From: Haloferax larsenii JCM 13917
GTDB taxonomy: Archaea > Halobacteriota > Halobacteria > Halobacteriales > Haloferacaceae
Direction of reading: 5' to 3'
Length of the DNA stretch: 64,000 nt
NCBI RefSeq assembly: GCF_000336955.1
Contig: NZ_AOLI01000017.1
Coordinates: 30,244 to 94,243 of the forward strand
Shown here: positions 6,409 through 64,000 of the stretch, one piece after another
Layout of the letters: every line of letters starts with the position of its first letter
How positions within the stretch are numbered: the first letter of the stretch is position 1
The notes under the pieces: generated by a model
Told to the model about the DNA's origin: nothing
The model's input: only the letters and a program-made list of their open reading frames with translations
Databases searched by the model: none
Program-made: the position numbers and the translations under genes

Positions 6409-7725
6409 ATGGAAGACACTAGCAAGCGTATCCTGTCTCGGAGGCAACTCCTCGCAGGTGCCGGCGCCGCGACGGCGACGGGCCTGACGGGTTGTCTCGG
6501 GCAGTTCACCGGCACGACCAGCCAGACTAGCGAAGATGTCACGCTCAAGGCTCGCCACTTTGCGACCAGCGGCGTCGAGAAGTTCTACGAGAAACACGCC
6601 GCAAAGTTCGAAGAAGAGACGGGCATCTCCGTCGAAATCGAGACGATGGGCTGGGGCAACGCGAAGCAAAAACAGCTCAACAGCATCACCAGTCGCGACG
6701 GTCCCGACGTCGAGGAAATCGCCTCGACGTGGATGCCCCAGCAGGTCCAATCCGACGCGTGGATGGACCTCAACGAACTCGACGTCAGTCTCGACGGCGT
6801 CTACGACCAACCGACGAACGTCGCCCAACACGACGGAATCACCGCCGGTTTCCCGTGGTTCTGGGGGCCGCGCGGCCACCTCGTCCATCAAGGAATGCTC
6901 GACGAGGCCGGAATCAGTGAACAGCCGTCTTCGTGGGACCAACTCGTCGAGCAGAGCAAGCAGTTCAAAGAGTCGTTCCCCGACAAACACCTGTTCGGAC
7001 TCCCCGGCGCGAATAACTGGGCTGTGACCCAGTATTACGCCATGTTCGTCTGGCAGGCGGGCGGCAAGCTACTCTCCGGCGACAAGTCGGAAGCGGTGTT
7101 CAACAGCGAGGAAGCCGTCGAGGCGCTCAACTTCTACAAGGACCTCGCGACGAAGCACGAGGTCGCACCGAAGGCGTCCGCCGAGTGGGACGGCCCCGCC
7201 CGCGACAGCGCCTTCATCAACAAGCGCATCGCGGGGACGTGGAGTTCGCTCAACACGGTCGACAAGGTCGTCTCCGAGGGCGACGCGACCCGCGACTCCA
7301 TGGCGGTGTACAAACCACCGGCAGGGCCGAACGGCCAGTCCGCGACGTTCTACGGGGTGAACCTCGTCGGTATCCACCCGTGGACGGACTATCCGGACGA
7401 GGCCGCAAAGTGGCTGAAGTACCTGATGAAGCCCGCCGTCAACGCCGACATCGCTTCGATGACCGGCTTCCTGCCGACGATAAAAAGCGGCTTCGACCAA
7501 GAACAGTTCTCTGGACCGCTGTACCAGACGTTCGCCGACGAGGTCCTGCCGGGCGCGAAGACGTTCCCGCAGGTCATCGGCTGGGGCGAAGTCGAAGGCA
7601 CCATCAAGAACGCCGTCACCGACGTGCTCACGAAGGGCGTCAGCGGCGACTGGAGCGAAGGCGACACCCAAGCCGCCCTCGACAAGGCAGTCCAGCAGGC
7701 GAACAACGTCCTGAGCGAAAACTGA
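6409..7725 (+). CDS. ABC transporter sugar-binding lipoprotein
   Basis: This 438-aa extracellular solute-binding protein (family 1, MalE/UgpB type) is anchored outside the membrane. The N terminus has a Tat-type signal (SRRQLLAGAG) ending in a lipobox (LTGC, Cys about residue 28). The mature part has typical family segments such as FYEKHAAKFEEETGI, ITSRDGPDVEEI, and a long C-terminal lobe ending in a helix of Gln/Asn. Two permeases follow, and the ATPase lies at 14111. By context the ligand is probably a chito-oligosaccharide or amino sugar. The start is set by the TATA box 30 bases upstream. Confidence 0.9.
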   Translation: MEDTSKRILSRRQLLAGAGAATATGLTGCLGQFTGTTSQTSEDVTLKARHFATSGVEKFYEKHAAKFEEETGISVEIETMGWGNAKQKQLNSITSRDGPDVEEIASTWMPQQVQSDAWMDLNELDVSLDGVYDQPTNVAQHDGITAGFPWFWGPRGHLVHQGMLDEAGISEQPSSWDQLVEQSKQFKESFPDKHLFGLPGANNWAVTQYYAMFVWQAGGKLLSGDKSEAVFNSEEAVEALNFYKDLATKHEVAPKASAEWDGPARDSAFINKRIAGTWSSLNTVDKVVSEGDATRDSMAVYKPPAGPNGQSATFYGVNLVGIHPWTDYPDEAAKWLKYLMKPAVNADIASMTGFLPTIKSGFDQEQFSGPLYQTFADEVLPGAKTFPQVIGWGEVEGTIKNAVTDVLTKGVSGDWSEGDTQAALDKAVQQANNVLSEN

Positions 7726-7821
7726 CCACGACACAGCGAGGACACCACGAACCACGCACTGACGCGCCAACACCAGCGAACCGCCACACGACACAGAACC
7801 AAGCCGATATCACACCACACT

Positions 7822-7890
7822 CCAACGCGTTGGTCCCCCACAGCCAGTATCAGCCACCATGAACCCTCCTACATTTGAGAACATATATAT
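7822..7890 (+). promoter_or_regulatory. Palindrome and TATA box before the permease genes
   Basis: The 189-bp gap after the binding-protein gene is C/A-rich and holds a perfect 12-bp palindrome, CCAACGCGTTGG, at 7822-7833. A clear TATA element (ACATATATAT, 7881-7890) lies ~25-30 bases before the permease ATG at 7915. The permeases therefore appear to have their own promoter in addition to read-through. The palindrome, ~50 bases upstream of the TATA box, could be an activator site. Confidence 0.5.
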
Positions 7891-7914
7891 GAACCAGTTG
7901 AGAAGTGATGACAC

Positions 7915-8892
7915 ATGTTAGAACGGGCCAAAAGCGGTTTCACGAGAGCCGTCCCGAACTGGGTGCAGGTACGGATACCCAGACTCGGCGACGACACGCG
8001 ATTCGCCTACAAACTCCTGCTACCGGCGTTCCTGATGATGGGGATTATCCACTTCCTCCCTATCGTCTGGGGATTCTACATCAGCTTCGTCCAACTCGAC
8101 GCGTCGTACGTGTCGAACTGGTGGAACGCGCCGATAGTCGGGTTCGAAAACTACGCCAAGATATTCAACCCCAACACCATCGTCGGTGCCGAGTTCTGGA
8201 CCTCGCTCCGGCAGACACTCGTCTTCACCGTGGGGTCCGTCATCGGCATCTACACGCTCGGACTGGGGACGGCACTGCTTTTGAATCGGGACTTCCGCGG
8301 GAAACTCGCCGCGCGGACGCTCGTGTTGGTCCCGTGGATTGCGCCCGCCGTCGTGACCGTCCTGACGTGGCAGATGATGTTCCGCACCGACACCGGGATG
8401 ATAAACCACATCCTGCGGTCGGTCGGGCTCATCGACGGGTCGTTCTTCTGGCTCATCGGTCCGCGGTCGATATTCGCCATCACCGCCGTGTGGACGTGGC
8501 AGAACTTCCCGTGGGCGGCGATTATGCTCTACGCGGGGCTCCAGTCGATTCCGGAGCACCTCTACGAGGCCGCCGAAACCGACGGTGCGGGGCGGTGGGG
8601 CAAGTTCCGGTACATCACGATGCCGCAACTCAAGCCCGTCTCGGTCGTCATCGTCCTCCTGATGGTCGTCTGGACGCTCATCAACTTCACCGTCCCGTAC
8701 GTGCTTCTCGGCGCGAGTCCGAGCGACTCCGGAAAGGTGCTGATGTTGTTCATCTACAACTACGCCTTCTCCAACTGGTCGTTCGGCCTCGGCGCAGCGA
8801 TGAGTACGGTCCTCTTCATCGTCGCCATGATTCTCGCGTACATCTACTACACCCGCGTCATCGGCGGCGAGTTCGAGGGAGGTGCAATCTGA
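7915..8892 (+). CDS. ABC sugar transporter permease (MalF type)
   Basis: This 325-aa integral membrane protein forms one half of the importer channel. It has about six to seven hydrophobic segments (e.g. LLLPAFLMMGIIHFLPIV near residues 39-56, then ~100-125, ~130-150, ~180-205, ~240-260, ~290-315). The cytoplasmic EAA loop that contacts the ATPase is visible (YEAAETDGAGRW, then ITMPQLKP). It is followed one base later by the second permease, and the pair works with the upstream lipoprotein. The start ATG lies ~25 bases after a TATA box; an earlier ATG at 7891 runs into a stop. Confidence 0.92.
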   Translation: MLERAKSGFTRAVPNWVQVRIPRLGDDTRFAYKLLLPAFLMMGIIHFLPIVWGFYISFVQLDASYVSNWWNAPIVGFENYAKIFNPNTIVGAEFWTSLRQTLVFTVGSVIGIYTLGLGTALLLNRDFRGKLAARTLVLVPWIAPAVVTVLTWQMMFRTDTGMINHILRSVGLIDGSFFWLIGPRSIFAITAVWTWQNFPWAAIMLYAGLQSIPEHLYEAAETDGAGRWGKFRYITMPQLKPVSVVIVLLMVVWTLINFTVPYVLLGASPSDSGKVLMLFIYNYAFSNWSFGLGAAMSTVLFIVAMILAYIYYTRVIGGEFEGGAI

Positions 8893-8893
8893 G

Positions 8894-9805
8894 ATGTTGA
8901 GCGCACTTCGACGCGAAGACGAAGGCGGTCGTATCCCGGAGACGTGGCGGTTGTCGACCGACGGCCGCGAACTCCTCTTCGACGCCTTCACGCGGTTCGC
9001 ACTCGGATTGGTGCTCCTGTTCGCGCTCTTTCCCATCTGGATGATGGTGATGAACAGCTTCAAATCCCGGAGCCAGGTGATGACGGAGAATCCGACGCTG
9101 ATTCCCAGCGAGTTCCACGTCTCGAACTACTTCGAGATGTGGCAGCGCTTCCCGCTGTTGGATTACTTCCTGAACAGTCTCATCATCGCCAGCGTGACGA
9201 CGGTCGTCACCATCCTCATCGCCAGCCTCGCCGCCTACGCGTTCTCGCGGTACGACTTCCCGGGGAAGGGAAAGCTCGAACTGTCGATTCTGGGGACGCA
9301 GATGATTCCCGGCGTGCTCATCCTCCTGCCGATGTACCTGCTTTTCATCAACATCCAGATGCAGGTCGGCATCCCGATGAAAGACACATATCACGGGCTC
9401 ATCTTCCTCTACTCGACGTTCACCATCCCCTTTGCAATCTGGATGCTTCGCGGCTACTTCGACACCATCCCGAAGGCGCTGGGTGAAGCGGCCCGCATCG
9501 ACGGCTGTACCCGACTCGGCGCGCTCTTCCGCGTCGTGATGCCCTTGGCCGCCCCCGGCATCGCCGCCACCTCGATGTTCGTGTTCCTCCTCGCGTTCAA
9601 CGAGGTGCTGTTCGCGTCGGTCCTCGGCTCTGACACTGTCACGCCGTTCGCAATCGGTATTCAGGAGTTCCAGACGCAGACCCAGACCTACTGGGGGCAG
9701 ATGATGGCGGCCTCGACGGTGGCGACGATTCCGCTGTTGTTCCTGTTCGTCCTGTTCCAGAAGCCCATCGTCTCCGGACTGACCTCCGGCAGCGTGAAGC
9801 ACTGA
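8894..9805 (+). CDS. ABC sugar transporter permease (MalG type)
   Basis: This 303-aa second permease has six predicted membrane spans and an EAA loop (GEAARIDGCTRL, then VVMPLAAPG). The ATG at 8894 follows the previous stop by one base. A strong SD (GGAGGTG, about 8877-8883) inside the end of the upstream gene supports that start over a GTG at 8882. Together with the MalF-type partner and the ATPase encoded at 14111 it completes a carbohydrate importer of the CUT1 type. The GH3 enzyme follows after 69 bases. Confidence 0.92.
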   Translation: MLSALRREDEGGRIPETWRLSTDGRELLFDAFTRFALGLVLLFALFPIWMMVMNSFKSRSQVMTENPTLIPSEFHVSNYFEMWQRFPLLDYFLNSLIIASVTTVVTILIASLAAYAFSRYDFPGKGKLELSILGTQMIPGVLILLPMYLLFINIQMQVGIPMKDTYHGLIFLYSTFTIPFAIWMLRGYFDTIPKALGEAARIDGCTRLGALFRVVMPLAAPGIAATSMFVFLLAFNEVLFASVLGSDTVTPFAIGIQEFQTQTQTYWGQMMAASTVATIPLLFLFVLFQKPIVSGLTSGSVKH

Positions 9806-41997: not shown

Positions 41998-42122
41998 TCT
42001 TCGTGATTAGGTCTCTGGTGAACTACTGAGTCAGTCTCGATGAGCAACAACCCGATAGTCTACCTCCCGAAAATGTCAATAGAATATAAACATTTTAACC
42101 CGGACAATTCTACCATGTATTC

Positions 42123-43040
42123 ATGGTTGTGGTCGAAATACAATCCCTCACAAAACGGTACGGCGACATCTGTGCAGTCGAAGATGTTGACCTTACAGTT
42201 GAGCAAGGGGAGGTATTCGGATTTCTCGGACCGAACGGTGCTGGCAAATCGACGACGATCAACGTCCTTCTCGATTTCGTGCGGCCAACGTCGGGAAGCG
42301 TTTCTATATTTGGTATCAACCCACAGAAAGATCCACAGGCCGCCCGCGAACACCTCGGTGTCCTTCCTGAGGCAACAGGGTTCTATAACCGAGATACTCC
42401 TCGCGAACACCTCGAATTTGCAATCGCGATGAAGCGAGCCGACGATGACCCACATGAGTTACTCGAACGGGTCGGAATCGCCGAGGTGAGTGACAAAGCA
42501 GTTGGTGAGTTTTCCAAGGGAATGCGGCAACGTCTCGGCTTGGCAATTGCGCTCGTCGGCGACCCTGACCTATTACTCCTTGATGAGCCTCTGAGCGGTC
42601 TTGACCCGACTGGCGCACAGACTTTTCGGAAAATCATCCGAGAGGAGCGTGACCGGGGCGCAGCCGTTTTCTTTTCGAGTCACATTATGGACCAAGTCGA
42701 AGTCCTCTGTGATCGAGTCGGTATCATGAATGACGGCCACCTTGTTGCGGTCGATTCGGTCGAAGAACTCCGTACAACGACCGAGGTGCCCTTCAAGCTA
42801 TCCTTGGTGCTCGATTCAATTCCGAGAGATATCCAAGAGACATTACTTCGTCTCGATGGTGTTGAGTCGGTTTCAATCGAGGGAGACGGCCTGACGGTTG
42901 GCTGTTCGGCTACACGCGCGAAGGCGGCTGTTGTCGTTCAACTCGACGAACTCGGTACAACAATCTCCGACATCAGAACCGATGCCCCGTCGCTGGAACA
43001 GGTCTTCATGGAGACTGCGGCCGAGGTGCCACGAGCGTGA
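42123..43040 (+). CDS. ABC-2 type exporter ATP-binding protein
   Basis: This 305-aa ATPase has Walker A GPNGAGKST, signature FSKGMRQRLGLA, Walker B DLLLLDEPLSGLDPTG and switch His in FFSSHIMDQVE. The C-terminal ~80 residues form the variable region typical of drug/peptide/antibiotic exporters (DrrA/CcmA/NosF-like). It overlaps the permease start by 4 bases. A TATA box (AATATAAA, 42083-42090) lies ~35 bases upstream, just inside the left repeat, so the cassette brings its own promoter. Codon use is AT-shifted compared with the neighbours. Confidence 0.92.
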   Translation: MVVVEIQSLTKRYGDICAVEDVDLTVEQGEVFGFLGPNGAGKSTTINVLLDFVRPTSGSVSIFGINPQKDPQAAREHLGVLPEATGFYNRDTPREHLEFAIAMKRADDDPHELLERVGIAEVSDKAVGEFSKGMRQRLGLAIALVGDPDLLLLDEPLSGLDPTGAQTFRKIIREERDRGAAVFFSSHIMDQVEVLCDRVGIMNDGHLVAVDSVEELRTTTEVPFKLSLVLDSIPRDIQETLLRLDGVESVSIEGDGLTVGCSATRAKAAVVVQLDELGTTISDIRTDAPSLEQVFMETAAEVPRA

Positions 43041-44800
43041 ACCGTATCCCACTACTCGCTCGGTATGATTTCGGCCACGCGCTCCGAGCTCGGTTGGTCT
43101 GGGGTTCCGTCGTTTTACTTGGGTTGATGTTCCTGCCGACTGCGGGTCCGACAGGCCACCGTCAGTATATCGAGTACTTGTTTCTTGTACCGTACGACCT
43201 ACGAAAGTTTACATTGGTTATTGTCGCGGCTGTTGGCTACAATTCTGTCACTAGGGAACGCGTTACTGGGACGATAAAATTCGTTCTCGGACTTCCGAGT
43301 ACGAGACGTGACCTGCTCCTCGGAAAGCTACTCTCTCGAAGCATGATACTCGTGATTGCCACTGGTGCGATGTTGTTGGTCGAGAGTTTCCTCGCCGCGA
43401 GTGAGTTTGGTCAACAGTATCTTCTTTCATTTTGGACGATGGGTGCCTGGGTCCTTCTGTACGTTATCGTTTGGGGTGCCGTCGTAGTCGGTTACTCAGC
43501 TATATTTCGGACAGGTTATCGGACCCTCTTTGCGCTTGTCGGGACCTACTTCCTTCTCTCACCGAACCACGGACTCTGGCGCGTTCTTGTCAGACCACTA
43601 TTTTCGCTCGTCTTCACCGGTTCGTGGTCTACATCGGTGTATGAAACACTAGCCACTGCCCCGTTCTGGCTTCGATTTGTCGAGCGGCTCAACCCACTCA
43701 TCTCATTCTGGGAGGCCATGCGCTGGTCGATACACGCTATTGGCCCCGGGGAACCAGCTGGGAGTCTCGTCTTGAACCTATTCGGACTCTCGGTGTTCTT
43801 GGGATTCGGGACGGTGCCTCTGTTGTTTGGTTACTACCGCTTCGATGCAAGAGACCTCAGTAGTCAACCAGTATCGAAACAGACACGCTTCCGTCGCTAC
43901 CTCCGTGCAGTCCGAACATCCAGTACCAGCCTGTTTTCTCGCGCGCTCCTTCGGGCTAAGTCGCGCACTCTGGTGTTGTTTTGGAGAGATATCCGACAAA
44001 TGTTCCAAAACCGGGTGGTCGTTGTGGGAATTATGTTAGTAATCTCAGTTGTCACTCCACAGATTCTACAGACGATTGAACCCGACCCTGCATTTGGAAT
44101 GGTTGGATCTCTAACAATCCTTCCGTCTCTGTTTGGTTTACCGACTTTGATTCTTGGTGTTGCACTCGGGTATCGTTCCGTCGTCGGTGAGCGAGTGTCG
44201 AAAACGATTCGTATCATTCTTGGGCTTCCTGTCACCAGGCATAAACTCATTCTCGCGAAAGTACTCTCTCGAGTGGTGGGTGCACTCTTCGTGTTAGCTC
44301 CGATATTTCTGTTCGTTGAGGGGCTCGTTATTCTCCGATTTAACCGGACATTCCCATTGTTGTTCCTCACGTGGTCGGGACTCATCGCAGCGTTCGCCAT
44401 CTTCTGGGTTACAATTGCCGTCGGAATTTCAGCGGCAGTTTCGTCTCCCTACCGTTCGATTGCGGGTTGCTTTGGTGTGTTTTTCTTGTTCAGCAATAAC
44501 CTCGGTGTGTGGGGTTGGGGAGTTCGACCGCTGATTGTGACACTGTTTGCGGGTACTGTCTCTGGGTCAACGATCCGCCAAGTGCAAGATGAGGTCCCGC
44601 TGGTGCGCTACCTCGACCATCTGAACCCATTCCGTGCGTTCCAGACGGTTCAGGAGAGTTTATTCAGTCTCGTCGGCGTCGGTGCTGAAGCGTCTTCACC
44701 GTCCGTACCAATCGTCTTGTTTAGCTTGTTAGTCCTCTTGGCGATTCCGTCTGTCTCACTTCATCTGGGATATAAGTCGTTCGACAACAGTGAACTGTAG
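43037..44800 (+). CDS. Internally duplicated ABC-2 permease
   Basis: This 587-aa protein starts at GTG 43037, overlapping the ATPase stop (GTGA). It contains two ABC-2 halves. The first has SVTRERVTGTIKFVLGLPST and the second SVVGERVSKTIRIILGLPVT, each followed by a (L/I)LxKxLSR block and several membrane spans (~12 in total). The fusion lets one polypeptide form the exporter channel with a dimer of the ATPase. Substrate is unknown; export of, or protection from, a secreted product is a reasonable guess given the Tat protein gene downstream. Confidence 0.88.
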   Translation: MNRIPLLARYDFGHALRARLVWGSVVLLGLMFLPTAGPTGHRQYIEYLFLVPYDLRKFTLVIVAAVGYNSVTRERVTGTIKFVLGLPSTRRDLLLGKLLSRSMILVIATGAMLLVESFLAASEFGQQYLLSFWTMGAWVLLYVIVWGAVVVGYSAIFRTGYRTLFALVGTYFLLSPNHGLWRVLVRPLFSLVFTGSWSTSVYETLATAPFWLRFVERLNPLISFWEAMRWSIHAIGPGEPAGSLVLNLFGLSVFLGFGTVPLLFGYYRFDARDLSSQPVSKQTRFRRYLRAVRTSSTSLFSRALLRAKSRTLVLFWRDIRQMFQNRVVVVGIMLVISVVTPQILQTIEPDPAFGMVGSLTILPSLFGLPTLILGVALGYRSVVGERVSKTIRIILGLPVTRHKLILAKVLSRVVGALFVLAPIFLFVEGLVILRFNRTFPLLFLTWSGLIAAFAIFWVTIAVGISAAVSSPYRSIAGCFGVFFLFSNNLGVWGWGVRPLIVTLFAGTVSGSTIRQVQDEVPLVRYLDHLNPFRAFQTVQESLFSLVGVGAEASSPSVPIVLFSLLVLLAIPSVSLHLGYKSFDNSEL

Positions 44801-44861
44801 TCTATCTTCTGAGGATGTCTGAAATACAGAAAAATAGGCGTGTGCGTAAATCTACAACTAT

Positions 44862-45317
44862 CTACCCTTCTTGCTTGACTGTGCCGTCAACTGTGACTCT
44901 AATCTCGGGGTCCGCGTTAACGATTTCCCAATCAGAATCGTCAAGGCTTCCGTTGAATTCTATTTCGTCGTAAAAGGGCTCATTTGCGCCATCGAGACCG
45001 CCCTTAATCTTCGTCCAAGTATCGTGTTTTATGACCTTATCGTTGTTAATACCGCCGACTCCGTTGTCGATATTCACTAATCTGGGGTCTGGGTCGGGGA
45101 CGTTTACTTCGTAGTCTGGAGAGCCGTCTCCTTTTTCGATTTCGAATTTAACGTAATGATTCTTGGCGTCAGCAGGCTCTGGTGATGAGTCATCGGACTC
45201 TGATACTGTGTCTGTTTCTGAAGCAGTTGCAGAGCCGGACATGCACAGTCCTACTCCTGCTACCACGGCACCTGTTTTCTTGACTACACTGCGGCGACCA
45301 ATAATATCATCAGACAT
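44862..45317 (-). CDS. Small Tat-exported protein of the cassette
   Basis: This protein of 151 aa from ATG 45317 (MSDDIIGRRSVVKKTGAVV) has a Tat motif (GRRSVVKKTG), a hydrophobic stretch and a probable signal-peptidase site (SATASET), with no lipobox. A Ser/Asp/Glu-rich linker (~35-55) leads to a compact ~95-residue domain (YVKFEIEKGDGSPDYEVNVPDPDP; KHDTWTKIKGGLDG; DWEIVNADPEIRVTVDG) that looks beta-rich. It has no recognised family. It is convergent with the permease gene and inside the 36-bp repeats. A secreted effector (halocin-like) or surface protein is possible; there is no direct evidence for either. Confidence 0.7.
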   Translation of the reverse strand: MSDDIIGRRSVVKKTGAVVAGVGLCMSGSATASETDTVSESDDSSPEPADAKNHYVKFEIEKGDGSPDYEVNVPDPDPRLVNIDNGVGGINNDKVIKHDTWTKIKGGLDGANEPFYDEIEFNGSLDDSDWEIVNADPEIRVTVDGTVKQEG

Positions 45318-45515
45318 TACAGTCAGAATTTCTAACACCATTGCATTAATTGTTACTAAATCAACACCTGTGTCGGCAAGCTCCCCGTTCCGTTATGGGT
45401 AATTCAGAGACTCTGCAAGGCGGTACGTGAAATGCTTGAGAATGCATTTTCTAGTAATTTCTATCGGTATCCCAGGTTTTCGGCGTCGGTGAGGGAAAGT
45501 ACCGGCCACAACAAG

Positions 45516-45551
45516 TGACGGGCGTCACGGGAGCGGAAAAGCGTTCGGCCA
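45516..45551 (+). repeat. Right copy of the 36-bp direct repeat flanking the ABC cassette
   Basis: This sequence is identical to 41962-41997. It ends 13 bases before the ATG (45565) of the HTH protein and probably supplies its promoter: the GGAAAAGCG block lies ~28 bases before that ATG. The TGACGGGCGTCA near-palindrome is a possible binding site for the HTH protein itself. Confidence 0.9.
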
Positions 45552-45564
45552 CTAGACACCCAAT

Positions 45565-45858
45565 ATGTTGATTACCCCTGACGGTCAAGGCCGGTTTATG
45601 TCTGAGCGCCACGGCGAATCGCTCGAAGACGTCGACATCGCCGACATTTCGCCGAAGGCGTGGCGACTGCTGCGGGTTGCGGCGGGCTACAACCAGCGTG
45701 CGGTCGAACGCGAGGTCGACAACCTGATGCAGGCGCACATCTCGATGCTGGAATCCGGTAGCCGTGGTCTCTCTCAGTCTCGCCGCCGTGCATTGTTTGC
45801 TCTCTACACTGCTGAACTCGATGACGAGCAAGTCGACGCCCTGTTAGAACACTTCTAA
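45565..45858 (+). CDS. Small HTH (XRE-like) DNA-binding protein
   Basis: This protein of 97 aa from ATG 45565, or 86 aa from ATG 45598 (MSERHGESLEDVD), has a helix-turn-helix core (AWRLLRVAAGYNQRAVEREVDNLMQAHISMLESGSRGLSQSRRRALFALY) like XRE/Cro-type regulators. The C terminus ELDDEQVDALLEHF is acidic. The first ATG fits a leaderless transcript from the 36-bp repeat promoter. It was probably once divergent from the MBL gene with only 52 bases between the start codons, before the ABC cassette entered. Confidence 0.75.
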   Translation: MLITPDGQGRFMSERHGESLEDVDIADISPKAWRLLRVAAGYNQRAVEREVDNLMQAHISMLESGSRGLSQSRRRALFALYTAELDDEQVDALLEHF

Positions 45859-46061
45859 GCCGACCGCTTCTGACGCCGCTGCAGTCACGTCGTTCTCACG
45901 TCTGTTCAGTCCCTCGTCGTGAGTCCCGCGACTGTCGGTGCGGGAGGTGACTACTCTGGTGCCGTACTGCTACGTCCGTGAGCCGAGTCGACAAAGAACG
46001 GCCAGTTGCTACCGCATTGAAAATGATTAAGTATGAGTGTCTTTAGCAACAGAGTGTATCA

Positions 46062-60910: not shown

Positions 60911-61175
60911 ACCGCATCTGCGGCCGCAATGGGGGAAACAGCGACGGGGTCGTGCGTCGGTCTCGCACGGGGTGTCGTGGATGCAGGAAATCGTGTTGTG
61001 ACGTGGAGGTCCCGCAGCGCAACGTCGTCACTCACTGGTCGGCACCGTCAGAAAGTGGCTCAGGTGTTAGTGAGGGTCGTCACAAGGGGCTCGGTGGGGG
61101 TAACCCTCATCATCGCCACCGGTTGATTGTCGGTTGTGCAGGTGAAGAACCTCACGCTTTGGCGTTTGTTCTCCC

Positions 61176-61985
61176 TTACGAGTTCATCCGTCCATTAGAA
61201 AGCAGAGAATCAAACGGGTCGGACCGATTGTCATCATCCATGTGCTGAGCAATGCCGGAGTAGTAGCTCCCCCACAGCATAGATTCAGAATCAAGAACCT
61301 CGGAGCCCCAGTATTCCGAATGTAGCTGCTCCGGACAGCCATATTGGTCCTTGATAATTTGTACAAGAAGAACAGGATCCATCGGGGGGAACGGAAGTCG
61401 TGGCTTGTCTAATGGAGTAGAACAGTAATGAACAGATTCCCAAATAGCGTTCGGCAACCGGTCTGGGTCGAACTTCCCCCGTGATTGGAAGTGTGTAATT
61501 GGCTTAGACTCATCGTCGTTATCGCCGACATCGATGTCAAAGTGGTATTGCTTTGCCACCCTCCAGGCGTCCTCTGCGCCTTCGCCATCCCAACAACAGG
61601 GATCCCCTATGCCTTGACCACGATATTCCGAGTCACGACCTGCTAATATAGTTAGATTGATTGAATAGTTAGTGTATTCATTGTCTCTAACTGAAATATA
61701 TCCCCCGATTACTGCCCATCCATCATCGTTACTGAAATCCCGTGACCTGTCTCGCTGTGTTCGTTCATCGGGCGCCTCAATCTTAATTATCCAATTCGGC
61801 TGAATATTGAGAGTCCAATCTGTTGGTTCCTGGTTAGAGAGTCTGTGGTAGCTCCGCTCGAGGCTGTTTTTGTTATTCTCTTTCATTCCAGCTTGATCTT
61901 TGAGAAATCTAACCTCATCCACTAACCGTGAATACAGCTCTTTAGGCTTTGGGAGTAAAGTGTCCGGAGAAGGTAGCCGCGGCAT
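61176..61985 (-). CDS. Unrecognised protein of the terminal signalling operon
   Basis: This 269-aa cytoplasmic protein has no recognised family. Its N terminus is helical and charged (PKPKELYSRLVDEVRFLKDQAGM). The middle (WTLNIQPNWIIKIEAPDER; WAVIGGYISVRDNEYTNYSINLTIL) looks beta-rich. The C-terminal half has a notable pattern PITHFQSRGKF, then PRLPFPPMDPVLLVQIIKDQYG, which may mark a conserved domain. It starts one base after the stop of the receiver gene, so it is translated from the same transcript and is probably the operon's third component. Codon use is AT-rich, unlike the gene to its left. Confidence 0.7.
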   Translation of the reverse strand: MPRLPSPDTLLPKPKELYSRLVDEVRFLKDQAGMKENNKNSLERSYHRLSNQEPTDWTLNIQPNWIIKIEAPDERTQRDRSRDFSNDDGWAVIGGYISVRDNEYTNYSINLTILAGRDSEYRGQGIGDPCCWDGEGAEDAWRVAKQYHFDIDVGDNDDESKPITHFQSRGKFDPDRLPNAIWESVHYCSTPLDKPRLPFPPMDPVLLVQIIKDQYGCPEQLHSEYWGSEVLDSESMLWGSYYSGIAQHMDDDNRSDPFDSLLSNGRMNS

Positions 61986-61986
61986 T

Positions 61987-63057
61987 CTAGTTAGAGCCCT
62001 CCTGTTCCGGATTTATTGGGGGCTCTTCTGTTTCTTCTGAAACTTCCAGTTTGTCCGCAATGCGGTAGTCTTCGAACTCACCCTCTCTAGTATGATGTAC
62101 ATGGCTACACCTCAGGTGAACTTGACTCTCTGCGTCTCTACCATCTCGTCCTGCTGCAACTGTTTCGGGGAGTTCTTCACCACAAACCTGGCACCGCGGA
62201 AGTTCATCTACTTCGAAGACGTCTCTCCCAAAAGTGTTCAGTTTCCCGAACTGGGCCTCACGATCACTTGCAATTGCGACAACCGCACCGATCACTGATG
62301 TCGACCACCACCGGTCTGGAACTCGGTGGCTGAACACTCCATCGTAGGTGATTTCACCGCGATTTGTCCCGTTTAACTCATCGTGATAATCTTCCAGTTG
62401 GTCAGGACGGAGCCCAATTTTCGTCGCAGCCCAGACATTATCGATGAGCGGACCAGGCGTTTGTAAGAACCGGCTACGGATCCAGCGTCCAAATTGGATT
62501 GTACTTCCGCCTTTGACATTGGGATCTGATCTCAGTCCATTATTATACTCACGCGGGACGACACTTCGAAGGGCCTCTATCGCGTCCTCCGGGGGATTGA
62601 GTGTTTCAATGAGTGCCTCGAATCCCTCCCCACGAGCTGCTTCAATCGTAGCGTAGTCTTCGAGATCAGACTCAATCAGAGCCGCATTATCACCCCCTTT
62701 TAGATCGCTGTCCTCGTAGATAGCTTCAAATTGATCGTCTCCAGCACCTGCACGTAGTGCGGAAATTTCAGAACTAAAGCCATAGATCGGGACTCCCGGA
62801 TATACCTCACGAACTCGCCCTGCCATCGTGAGACCTTTGCCAGGGAACTTGCTCTTCTCGTGTAACTTCCAGTCGATGAGTACCAAATCCAGCTCGTCCA
62901 AACCCTCGATATTCTCGTGCTCTGGATTGAGTTGTTCTATGGCTTTATCAGGCCCTGTGAACTGGACTGTAGCGTTGTTCAATTCATCTTCTAGGCGTTC
63001 AGAATCCTCAATGCGACTCTCATTGTCATCGATCCACCAGATAGTGTACTCACTCAT
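61987..63057 (-). CDS. Receiver-domain protein with unknown output region and zinc-knuckle-like end
   Basis: This 356-aa response regulator-like protein has a complete phosphoacceptor site: D10/D11 (WWIDDNES), D62 (LVLIDWKL), S95/S96 (YGFSSE) and K120 (DSDLKGG). Residues ~155-285 have no recognised DNA-binding fold (VVPREYNNGLRSDP; IQFGRWIRSRFLQTPGPLIDNVWAATKIGLRPDQ; VPDRWWSTSVIGAVVAIAS). The C terminus has CQVCGEELP (C289, C292) and CSHVHH (C317, H319-H322), which may bind zinc. It overlaps the kinase gene by 8 bases, so kinase and receiver are a cognate pair. The output is possibly enzymatic or protein-binding, not classical DNA binding. Confidence 0.8.
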   Translation of the reverse strand: MSEYTIWWIDDNESRIEDSERLEDELNNATVQFTGPDKAIEQLNPEHENIEGLDELDLVLIDWKLHEKSKFPGKGLTMAGRVREVYPGVPIYGFSSEISALRAGAGDDQFEAIYEDSDLKGGDNAALIESDLEDYATIEAARGEGFEALIETLNPPEDAIEALRSVVPREYNNGLRSDPNVKGGSTIQFGRWIRSRFLQTPGPLIDNVWAATKIGLRPDQLEDYHDELNGTNRGEITYDGVFSHRVPDRWWSTSVIGAVVAIASDREAQFGKLNTFGRDVFEVDELPRCQVCGEELPETVAAGRDGRDAESQVHLRCSHVHHTREGEFEDYRIADKLEVSEETEEPPINPEQEGSN

Positions 63058-64000
63058 TCAGCGTCACCTCAACACAGGTCGACCAATTTTCAGTATCAAT
63101 GAACTGAGCTTGACCATCATACTTCTCAGCGATATTCCGAACGATACTGAGCCCAAGACCAGTCCCTCGGCCCAACTGATCAGACAACTCTGCAGGCATT
63201 TGGGTGGATAGATCCTCGTAAATGTTGTTTACTGGGTCTGAAATAAGCGGTTGGAAAGCCTCTTCACGCGCCCCCTCTGGGAGTCCAACACCGTTATCAT
63301 AAACTCGCAGGCGAACTCCTTCCTCTGATTGTTTGGCATCCACGTGAATTCTATTTCCGTCTTTTCCAGATGTTCCCACAGCTTTGATACTGTTAGTTAG
63401 TAGGTTTATCACGATTGAATAAAGTTCTGACTTAAACATCGGCGGAGTATATAACAAGTCTGAGATATCCTGACTGATCTCAACATTATAATACTCTGCG
63501 ATATATTCCGTTGCTTCAATAACGTCGTCTACGATCTCGCGTACGTGCTGCTCCTCTGCTGTCTTTTGATTTCCTGTTTCCATAAAGAGGCCGAAGAGTT
63601 CCATCTGGTTCTTGAACCGCTCTTCCATGGTTCGGAGATCCGAAATTACTTCTTCGAAATCGTCGCGGCGGGACTCCGGAATATCGTCTAACACTCTCTC
63701 AATCTCGGCCGCATTACTTCCTAGACGCCCAACCATGGACCGGAGTTCGTGGGAGAACGAGAAAACGACCTGATTAACAGAAAATGCCGACCGGAAGAAG
63801 TCGATCTCGCGTTCCTTCTGGTCGATCGTGTTACGGATTACGCGTGTCGCAGTTTCGACCGCTTCGTTCGAGACTTGCCGCTCATCTTCGGGAACGGTAT
63901 CTGTTGCAGTGTCCGCGACACCCTCCAACAAATCAATCGCACTATCAACGGGCTCTCGCTCGAGCTCATCTTCCTCGTCAGATGTATCCTCGTCAGGACT
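63050..64000 (-). CDS. Histidine kinase-like ATPase, N terminus outside the window
   Basis: The minus-strand frame is open to the window edge; 316 residues are visible and the true start lies beyond 64000. The visible N-terminal part is very acidic (DEDTSDEEDELEREP). A dimerisation helix holds the phosphoacceptor His (FSFSHELRSMVGRL), then the ATPase has N box YSIVINLLTNSIKAV, G1 VYDNGVGLP and G2 GRGTGLGLSIVRNIAEKY. The segment between, REIVDDVIEATEYIAEYYNVEISQDI, is typical of kinases. No membrane segment is seen in the visible part, so it may be a soluble sensor. It overlaps the receiver gene by 8 bases. Confidence 0.85.
   Translation of the reverse strand, partial: SPDEDTSDEEDELEREPVDSAIDLLEGVADTATDTVPEDERQVSNEAVETATRVIRNTIDQKEREIDFFRSAFSVNQVVFSFSHELRSMVGRLGSNAAEIERVLDDIPESRRDDFEEVISDLRTMEERFKNQMELFGLFMETGNQKTAEEQHVREIVDDVIEATEYIAEYYNVEISQDISDLLYTPPMFKSELYSIVINLLTNSIKAVGTSGKDGNRIHVDAKQSEEGVRLRVYDNGVGLPEGAREEAFQPLISDPVNNIYEDLSTQMPAELSDQLGRGTGLGLSIVRNIAEKYDGQAQFIDTENWSTCVEVTLNE

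What the first reader, a model, noticed from the sequence alone, without database searches (positions are those of the whole stretch)
61176..64000. AT-rich three-gene operon: kinase, receiver with novel output, and unknown protein
Seen: three minus-strand genes with an 8-base overlap and a 1-base gap, in sequence markedly poorer in GC than everything before 60911. The kinase has all H, N, G1 and G2 boxes; the receiver has D10/D11, D62, S95 and K120. The receiver's output (~155-285) and zinc-knuckle-like end match no regulator type I know, and the third protein is unrecognised with a PITHFQS...PRLPFPPMD pattern. Two-component systems in haloarchaea usually have a known output or none. Inference: an acquired signalling or defence module in which phosphorylation controls an unknown effector.
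Basis: partly seen in the sequence, partly recalled or inferred. Interest (0 to 1): 0.7.

Follow-up and report, generated by a model that had tools for sequence, protein, structure and literature searches.

The report
Phosphorelay-linked haloarchaeal restriction-modification cassette
The three AT-rich genes are part of a mobile gene cassette in salt-loving archaea that pairs a DNA-marking enzyme with a built-in phosphorelay (a MORC-like sensor kinase, a receiver and a partner protein of unknown fold), and it probably helps the cell recognise and attack foreign DNA.

Summary
The full kinase is 789 aa: an N-terminal MORC/MutL-like GHKL ATPase fused to a complete histidine kinase. Beside it, divergently, lie a YgjP-like metallopeptidase and an N6-adenine DNA methyltransferase. 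The whole 8.6-kb AT-rich block sits between two genes that are adjacent in at least four other Haloferax genomes.

In 392 haloarchaeal genomes the receiver family and the third-protein family ("P3") each occur at 15 loci in the same 14 genomes, always adjacent. A second haloarchaeal form adds a PLD-type helicase and an AAA ATPase. Relatives with P3 occur in Rhizobium, Paraburkholderia and Hymenobacter. Kinase, receiver and P3 diverge together (rho 0.91-0.96). The methyltransferase does not (rho about 0.2), so it is exchangeable.

The closest known kind is the R-M-associated, two-component-like paraMORC system predicted in bacteria in 2021 (HEF_HK/Response_reg_2). The window proteins match neither Pfam model. 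P3 (invariant HxD...PxxHxQ...R) matches no family or fold that I could search.

Most likely this is a restriction-type defence cassette in which the MORC-kinase signals through the receiver to P3. The receiver fold, both ATPase sites and the linkage are shown. Defence function and P3 as effector are inferred.

The parts
60911..64000 (.). AT-rich island, left end; it runs on past the window to about C17:99,700 (L002 about 9,600). Left boundary lies between the DUF3179 gene (start 60910) and the P3 stop (61176)
   Evidence: GC 0.46-0.54 against 0.63-0.68 on both sides; empty site in other Haloferax
61176..61985 (-). P3, 269 aa, third protein of the cassette, putative effector or receiver partner; new family
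   Evidence: ORF; homologues at 15 loci in 14 haloarchaeal genomes and three bacterial plasmids; no Pfam for any of 11 members
61377..61544 (-). P3 core motif region, residues 148-203: H148xD150, P162xxH165xQ167, PR196xP198, PPxD203
   Evidence: H148, D150, P162, H165, Q167 and R196 invariant in 11 archaeal and bacterial members; P195 and P198 nearly invariant
61987..63057 (-). Receiver protein (RR), 356 aa
   Evidence: ORF; family profile matches receiver domains in the PDB and the model matches receiver folds
62632..63057 (-). Receiver (REC) domain of RR, residues about 1-142; D10/D11, phosphoacceptor D62, S95
62872..62874 (-). Codon of D62, predicted phosphoacceptor
   Evidence: invariant in 12 archaeal and bacterial members
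62197..62505 (-). RR output domain, residues about 185-287 (W192, PG201-202, A211, Y238xG240, WW250-251)
   Evidence: conserved in archaea and bacteria, no Pfam family
62086..62193 (-). Zinc-knuckle-like end of RR, residues 289-324 (C289, C292, H314, C317)
   Evidence: invariant in the close family; weak treble-clef hits in 3 members (E 0.024); not kept in distant members
63050..64000 (-). C-terminal 316 codons of the 789-aa GHKL-histidine kinase: DHp helix with H557, then ATPase domain. The N-terminal MORC/MutL-like GHKL domain lies beyond the window, L002:5663 downwards (C17:95,662)
   Evidence: full ORF L002:3294-5663:-; domains; invariant residues
63749..63751 (-). Codon of H557, predicted phosphoryl-accepting histidine
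   Evidence: H557 invariant, E558 nearly so, in 14 kinases

Best explanation
This is a mobile restriction-modification-type defence cassette that uses an internal phosphorelay. The methyltransferase marks host DNA and supplies the sequence specificity; it is exchanged freely between cassettes. The cytosolic 789-aa protein is a sensor: its N-terminal MORC/MutL-like ATPase is proposed to load on or clamp DNA that carries an unmarked or stalled methyltransferase complex. ATP-driven rearrangement then switches on the C-terminal histidine kinase, which phosphorylates H557 and passes the phosphate to D62 of the receiver. The receiver's output domain then acts on P3, the effector, probably a metal-dependent nuclease or other toxic enzyme built around H148, D150, H165, Q167 and R196. 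The YgjP-like peptidase would process or clear a component, or act as a second effector. Shown: gene content, both intact ATP sites, the histidine, the receiver fold with its Asp, fixed linkage, co-divergence of kinase, receiver and P3, and exchange of the methyltransferase. Inferred: DNA sensing, phosphotransfer, P3 as effector, and defence itself.
For: Cassette of MTase, YgjP, GHKL-kinase, receiver and P3 in 8 of 9 close loci (YgjP absent in Natrinema altunense). Receiver and P3 families each at 15 loci in the same 14 of 392 genomes, always adjacent. A second form has MTase, PLD/ResIII helicase, AAA_15 ATPase, kinase, receiver and P3. MTase-kinase-receiver-P3 in Rhizobium, Paraburkholderia and Hymenobacter plasmids. 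In other relatives of the kinase the slot after a receiver-like gene holds HNH (Deinococcus) or MBL-fold enzymes (Hymenobacter, Burkholderia, Pseudanabaena), with Vsr plus C5-MTase next door in B. glumae. N-terminal GHKL matches BbrUII/HgiDII restriction enzymes and MutL. Both ATP sites and H557 invariant. REC match to solved receivers. Mantel rho: HK-RR 0.96, HK-P3 0.94, RR-P3 0.91, HK-MTase 0.23 (p 0.13). Island versus empty site. No recognised nuclease in the five-gene form, which leaves P3 as the likeliest one.
Against: No experiment. P3 has no recognisable catalytic fold: the model has pLDDT 59.5 and no significant PDB fold match. The conserved receiver Lys is missing, so phosphorylation chemistry could be altered. 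The second form already has a nuclease-like helicase, so P3 need not be the nuclease. Clavibacter keeps the same output domain without P3. PADLOC and NCBIfam know no such system.
Confidence: 0.5

Rival explanations
1. The phosphorelay is a regulator of the R-M genes, not part of the attack. The receiver is a transcription factor (output domain plus zinc knuckle binding DNA), P3 is its co-regulator, and the phosphate sets expression of methyltransferase and peptidase from the shared divergent promoter region.
For: Compact divergent arrangement of YgjP and kinase (about 40 bp or less between starts at several loci). One weak MarR and one weak IclR helix-turn-helix hit in single receivers (E 0.054 and 0.1). 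R-M genes often need regulators.
Against: No confident DNA-binding domain. The MTase moves and flips relative to the kinase, and in Natrinema altunense lies downstream on the same strand. A MORC-like ATPase is odd for a plain transcription switch. P3 carries an invariant polar motif that looks like an active site.
Confidence: 0.2
2. P3 is a sequence-specific type II restriction enzyme with the methyltransferase as its cognate, and the kinase and receiver only modulate it.
For: No other nuclease candidate in the five-gene form; MTase matches type II MTases.
Against: A cognate pair should diverge together, but P3 and MTase do not (rho 0.35, p 0.07; 0.24, p 0.23 without the close pair), while P3 follows kinase and receiver. 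The window MTase is closest (53%) to that of a second-form cassette whose P3 is 16% identical.
Confidence: 0.12
3. Toxin-antitoxin-like abortive system: P3 or the YgjP peptidase kills the cell when the phosphorelay fires, and the MTase only marks self.
For: Third slot holds varied enzyme types in relatives (HNH, MBL-fold); the peptidase co-diverges with the kinase (Spearman 0.90).
Against: No toxicity data; peptidase absent in one member and not seen in the second form.
Confidence: 0.1
4. An ordinary cytosolic stress-sensing two-component system with no defence role, sitting by chance near a methyltransferase.
For: Haloarchaea have many histidine kinases and receivers; the receiver profile also picks up canonical receivers.
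Against: MTase beside the cassette at every haloarchaeal locus whose flank was available, and in many bacterial relatives; patchy, mobile distribution; MORC-like domain.
Confidence: 0.08

Closest known systems
HEF_HK / Response_reg_2 two-component-like system associated with R-M (Bellieny-Rabelo 2021, PMC8011034; PF19191, PF19192)
   Same: Same kinase architecture (N-terminal HATPase_c_3, histidine helix, C-terminal HATPase_c), cytosolic, adjacent divergent receiver with no other known domain, beside R-M genes. Function predicted there too, not tested.
   Different: Window proteins hit neither Pfam model at E up to 1; only two distant receivers touch PF19192 (best E 0.083). Archaeal; N6-adenine MTase instead of the typical C5-MTase; P3 and YgjP partners not described in the parts of that paper I read.
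MORC / paraMORC GHKL ATPases in R-M operons (Iyer 2008, PMC2292703)
   Same: N-terminal GHKL ATPase with intact motifs, encoded with a methyltransferase; in the second form also with an SF2 helicase and a PLD-like domain.
   Different: Fused to a complete histidine kinase and paired with a receiver; that paper's text does not contain the word 'receiver'.
BbrUII/HgiDII-family restriction enzymes (NCBIfam NF050001)
   Same: GHKL domain, residues 10-200, E 1e-24.
   Different: Similarity stops after the GHKL domain; score 87 against a cut-off of 550.
MADS / BREX (MAD2, PglX methyltransferases)
   Same: The methyltransferase shows partial similarity; methylation with a multi-gene effector set.
   Different: No PglZ, BrxC or other MADS/BREX core genes seen; scores far below cut-offs.

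Membership tests
HEF_HK/Response_reg_2 system | Kinase with HATPase_c_3 plus DHp-like helix plus HATPase_c | tested here: met
   HATPase_c_3 at 30-142 and HATPase_c at 665-788; H557 invariant and E558 nearly so
HEF_HK/Response_reg_2 system | Match to Pfam HEF_HK (PF19191) | tested here: not met
   No hit at E up to 1 for the full 789-aa kinase
HEF_HK/Response_reg_2 system | Match to Pfam Response_reg_2 (PF19192) | tested here: not met
   No hit for the window receiver; none in 20 relatives. Two of 12 wider family members touch it weakly, best E 0.083. No strong positive control rang
HEF_HK/Response_reg_2 system | Receiver gene adjacent to the kinase gene | tested here: met
   Overlapping or adjacent genes at every haloarchaeal locus examined
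HEF_HK/Response_reg_2 system | R-M genes in the neighbourhood | tested here: met
   N6 MTase beside the cassette
MORC/paraMORC ATPases | N-terminal GHKL ATPase with intact ATP-binding motifs | tested here: met
   E35, N39, D42, D69xG71xG73, G106xKGxGR112 invariant
MORC/paraMORC ATPases | S5 domain after the GHKL domain | tested here: inconclusive
   Conserved region 144-406 follows, but no S5 model matched and it was not folded
Two-component system | Receiver fold with acidic pair and phosphoacceptor Asp | tested here: met
   PDB receivers, best E 6e-4; fold matches, best E 4e-5; D11 and D62 invariant
Two-component system | Conserved Lys after strand 5 of the receiver | tested here: not met
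   K120 of the window is not conserved
Two-component system | Phosphotransfer from His to Asp | not testable with these tools
   needs biochemistry
Type II R-M system | DNA methyltransferase | tested here: met
   N6_Mtase E 3.5e-19, Eco57I E 1.3e-18, type II MTase models
Type II R-M system | Cognate restriction endonuclease | tested here: not met
   No nuclease domain recognised in the five genes; P3 does not co-diverge with the MTase

The most novel reading that the evidence does not exclude
A phosphorelay-gated restriction system. The methyltransferase is an interchangeable recognition subunit, a MORC-like clamp fused to a histidine kinase reports unmarked DNA, and a phosphorylated receiver switches on a new class of effector (P3, HxD...PxxHxQ...R) shared by archaea and bacteria.
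Probability: 0.33. Interest if true: 0.82.

Novelty: new variant of a known kind. Interest (0 to 1): 0.58.

Why it matters
Two-component signalling and DNA restriction are normally treated as separate subjects. If this cassette works as proposed, foreign-DNA detection would pass through histidine-aspartate phosphotransfer, and specificity could be changed by swapping only the methyltransferase. It also offers a tractable archaeal host (Haloferax) in which to ask what MORC-like ATPases sense, a question that bears on eukaryotic MORC proteins. P3 is a family without an entry in the libraries searched.

Tried and rejected
P3 in viral contigs: none. P3 or receiver in plasmids by direct tblastn: only the Halomicrobium plasmid. 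P3 structure: low-confidence model, no fold match, so no fold is claimed. Receiver model is weak overall (pLDDT 44); only its REC part is used. The weak Cmr5 hits in PADLOC fall in the kinase's helical part and are dismissed as chance. MAD2/PglX as a label for the methyltransferase was rejected: far below cut-offs. PF19192 searches in plasmid records and relatives gave nothing, and no control rang clearly, so the distance to that family is not well measured. The Clavibacter third protein looked PIN-like by eye, but Pfam gave nothing; not claimed. No att-type repeats flank the island: the only long direct repeat is the 90-bp assembly duplication.

Full report
WHAT IS THERE. The three genes are as described, but the window end hides the rest. 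The window is G000:C17:30244-94243, and the flank was read as L002, where window position = L002 position + 59756. The kinase ORF is L002:3294-5663 on the minus strand, 789 aa. It has an N-terminal HATPase_c_3 domain (30-142) and a C-terminal HATPase_c domain (665-788). The N-terminal 200 residues match the BbrUII/HgiDII restriction-enzyme model (E 1e-24), an HSP90-type model and MutL (MutL in the PDB at E 1e-4). The C-terminal part matches solved histidine kinases. Divergent from it lie a YgjP-like metallopeptidase (L002:5703 onward) and a 737-aa N6-adenine methyltransferase (6833-9046; N6_Mtase E 3.5e-19, Eco57I E 1.3e-18; type II MTase models). The peptidase ORF is broken in this assembly by a single N flanked by a perfect 90-bp duplication. 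Haloferax elongans has a continuous 251-aa ORF there, and its DNA matches without the duplication, so the break is an assembly joint.

AN ISLAND. GC is 0.46-0.54 across the block and 0.63-0.68 outside. The flanking genes (DUF3179 and a NUDIX/eIF2B-like gene) lie about 200-290 bp apart in four other Haloferax genomes (loci L103, L111, L113, L115), whereas here 8.6 kb lies between them. Haloferax elongans carries the same island at the same site with 97-98% DNA identity. No tRNA lies near and no terminal repeats were found.

THE FAMILY. Searching 392 haloarchaeal genomes with the single proteins found nine genomes with receiver and P3 side by side. Eight of the nine loci have all five genes; Natrinema altunense lacks YgjP. 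Profiles that include distant members find 15 receiver loci and 15 P3 loci in the same 14 genomes, every pair adjacent. Four of these loci were new and had no part in building the profiles. Haloferax elongans has two cassettes. A second haloarchaeal form adds, in several members, a ResIII helicase with a PLD-like domain, an AAA_15 ATPase and a 126-137-aa protein. In bacteria, plasmids of Rhizobium, Paraburkholderia and Hymenobacter carry methyltransferase, kinase, receiver and a P3 with the same motif. Other relatives of the kinase have a different gene after a receiver-like gene: HNH (Deinococcus), MBL-fold (Hymenobacter volaticus, Burkholderia aenigmatica, Pseudanabaena), an unidentified 193-aa protein (Clavibacter), or nothing obvious (Enterobacter mori, Campylobacter). 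The HNH and MBL cases that were read have shorter receivers (215-228 aa) without the WW output domain (Burkholderia). So output domain and effector slot tend to change together, though Clavibacter keeps the output domain without P3.

CONSERVED RESIDUES. In 14 archaeal and bacterial kinases both ATP sites (E35, N39, D42, D69xGxG73, G106-R112; N672, N676, G710, GxGLGL 752-757) and H557 are invariant. In 12 receivers D11, D62, A211, G240 and W251 are invariant. The receiver profile matches solved receivers (RcpA E 6e-4; nearly all the hits listed are receivers) and its N-terminal part matches canonical receivers in some 200 haloarchaeal genomes. The model, weak overall, still matches receiver folds. 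The usual strand-5 Lys is not conserved. In 11 P3 proteins H148, D150, P162, H165, Q167 and R196 are invariant, and the newly found members keep the motif. No P3 member matches Pfam, and the family profile finds no convincing PDB chain.

CO-DIVERGENCE. Within eight loci of the window's form, distances of kinase, receiver and P3 correlate at rho 0.91-0.96 (Mantel p at most 0.001). Kinase against methyltransferase gives 0.23 (p 0.13), and 0.14 without the close pair. Over the wider set the peptidase also follows the kinase (Spearman 0.90, 7 loci) and the methyltransferase does not (0.06, 12 loci). The window's methyltransferase is 53% identical to one from a second-form cassette whose kinase is only 28% identical. 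Its orientation relative to the kinase varies. So kinase-receiver-P3(-peptidase) is the inherited unit and the methyltransferase is replaced from outside. A classical type II enzyme locked to its own methyltransferase would not tolerate that. The inference drawn is that the methyltransferase itself supplies recognition, as in type I and BREX systems (general knowledge), and that the phosphorelay and P3 are specificity-neutral.

KNOWN OR NEW. Bellieny-Rabelo et al. 2021 (PMC8011034) predicted in bacteria a two-component-like pair beside R-M genes, with the same kinase architecture (HATPase_c_3 + HEF_HK + HATPase_c in 174 of 222 sequences). Iyer et al. 2008 (PMC2292703) described MORC and paraMORC ATPases in R-M operons and proposed that they loop DNA. 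The cassette here is the same kind of thing but is not recognised by PF19191 or PF19192. It occurs in archaea and has a partner family (P3) without a name in the libraries searched. R-M genes are known to be patchy and horizontally moved in Halobacteria (Fullmer 2019, PMC6471742), which fits. I therefore file it as a new variant of a known, still untested kind.

LIMITS. All functional statements are inference. P3 membership of the first distant loci was recognised partly from gene position plus motif; the four independent loci and the co-divergence support it. Correlations rest on 7-12 loci. The collections hold one genome per species.

Noticed in passing
window 42000-46000: A second AT-rich stretch (GC 0.50-0.54) holds an ABC transporter ATPase (42123-43040), a 587-aa permease-like protein (43037-44800) and a small possibly exported protein (44862-45341): another likely acquired segment.
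   Followed up: partly
L002:6089-6269 (C17 about 96,088-96,268): A perfect 90-bp duplication around a single N breaks the YgjP-like ORF; Haloferax elongans lacks it, so it is an assembly joint, not a pseudogene.
   Followed up: yes
L100 (G210:C23:80500-99500): Haloferax elongans carries a second, distant cassette (MTase, PLD-helicase, AAA ATPase, kinase, receiver, P3) about 90 kb from the first on the same contig.
   Followed up: partly
L036:1-949: In Halorientalis persicus a P3 gene lies at the contig start with about its first 38 residues replaced by unrelated sequence; probably a broken or transposon-interrupted cassette.
   Followed up: no
L047:1-4877: In Hymenobacter sp. PAMC 26628 the P3-type cassette sits beside a Piwi-domain protein and a large DNA methyltransferase, which looks like a defence island.
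   Followed up: no
L037:15141-18755 and L038:11752-18928: Next to the cassettes of Halorubrum aidingense and Salinadaptatus lie other very large genes (1204-aa methyltransferase-like; 1406 and 998 aa), suggesting clustering with further defence systems.
   Followed up: no
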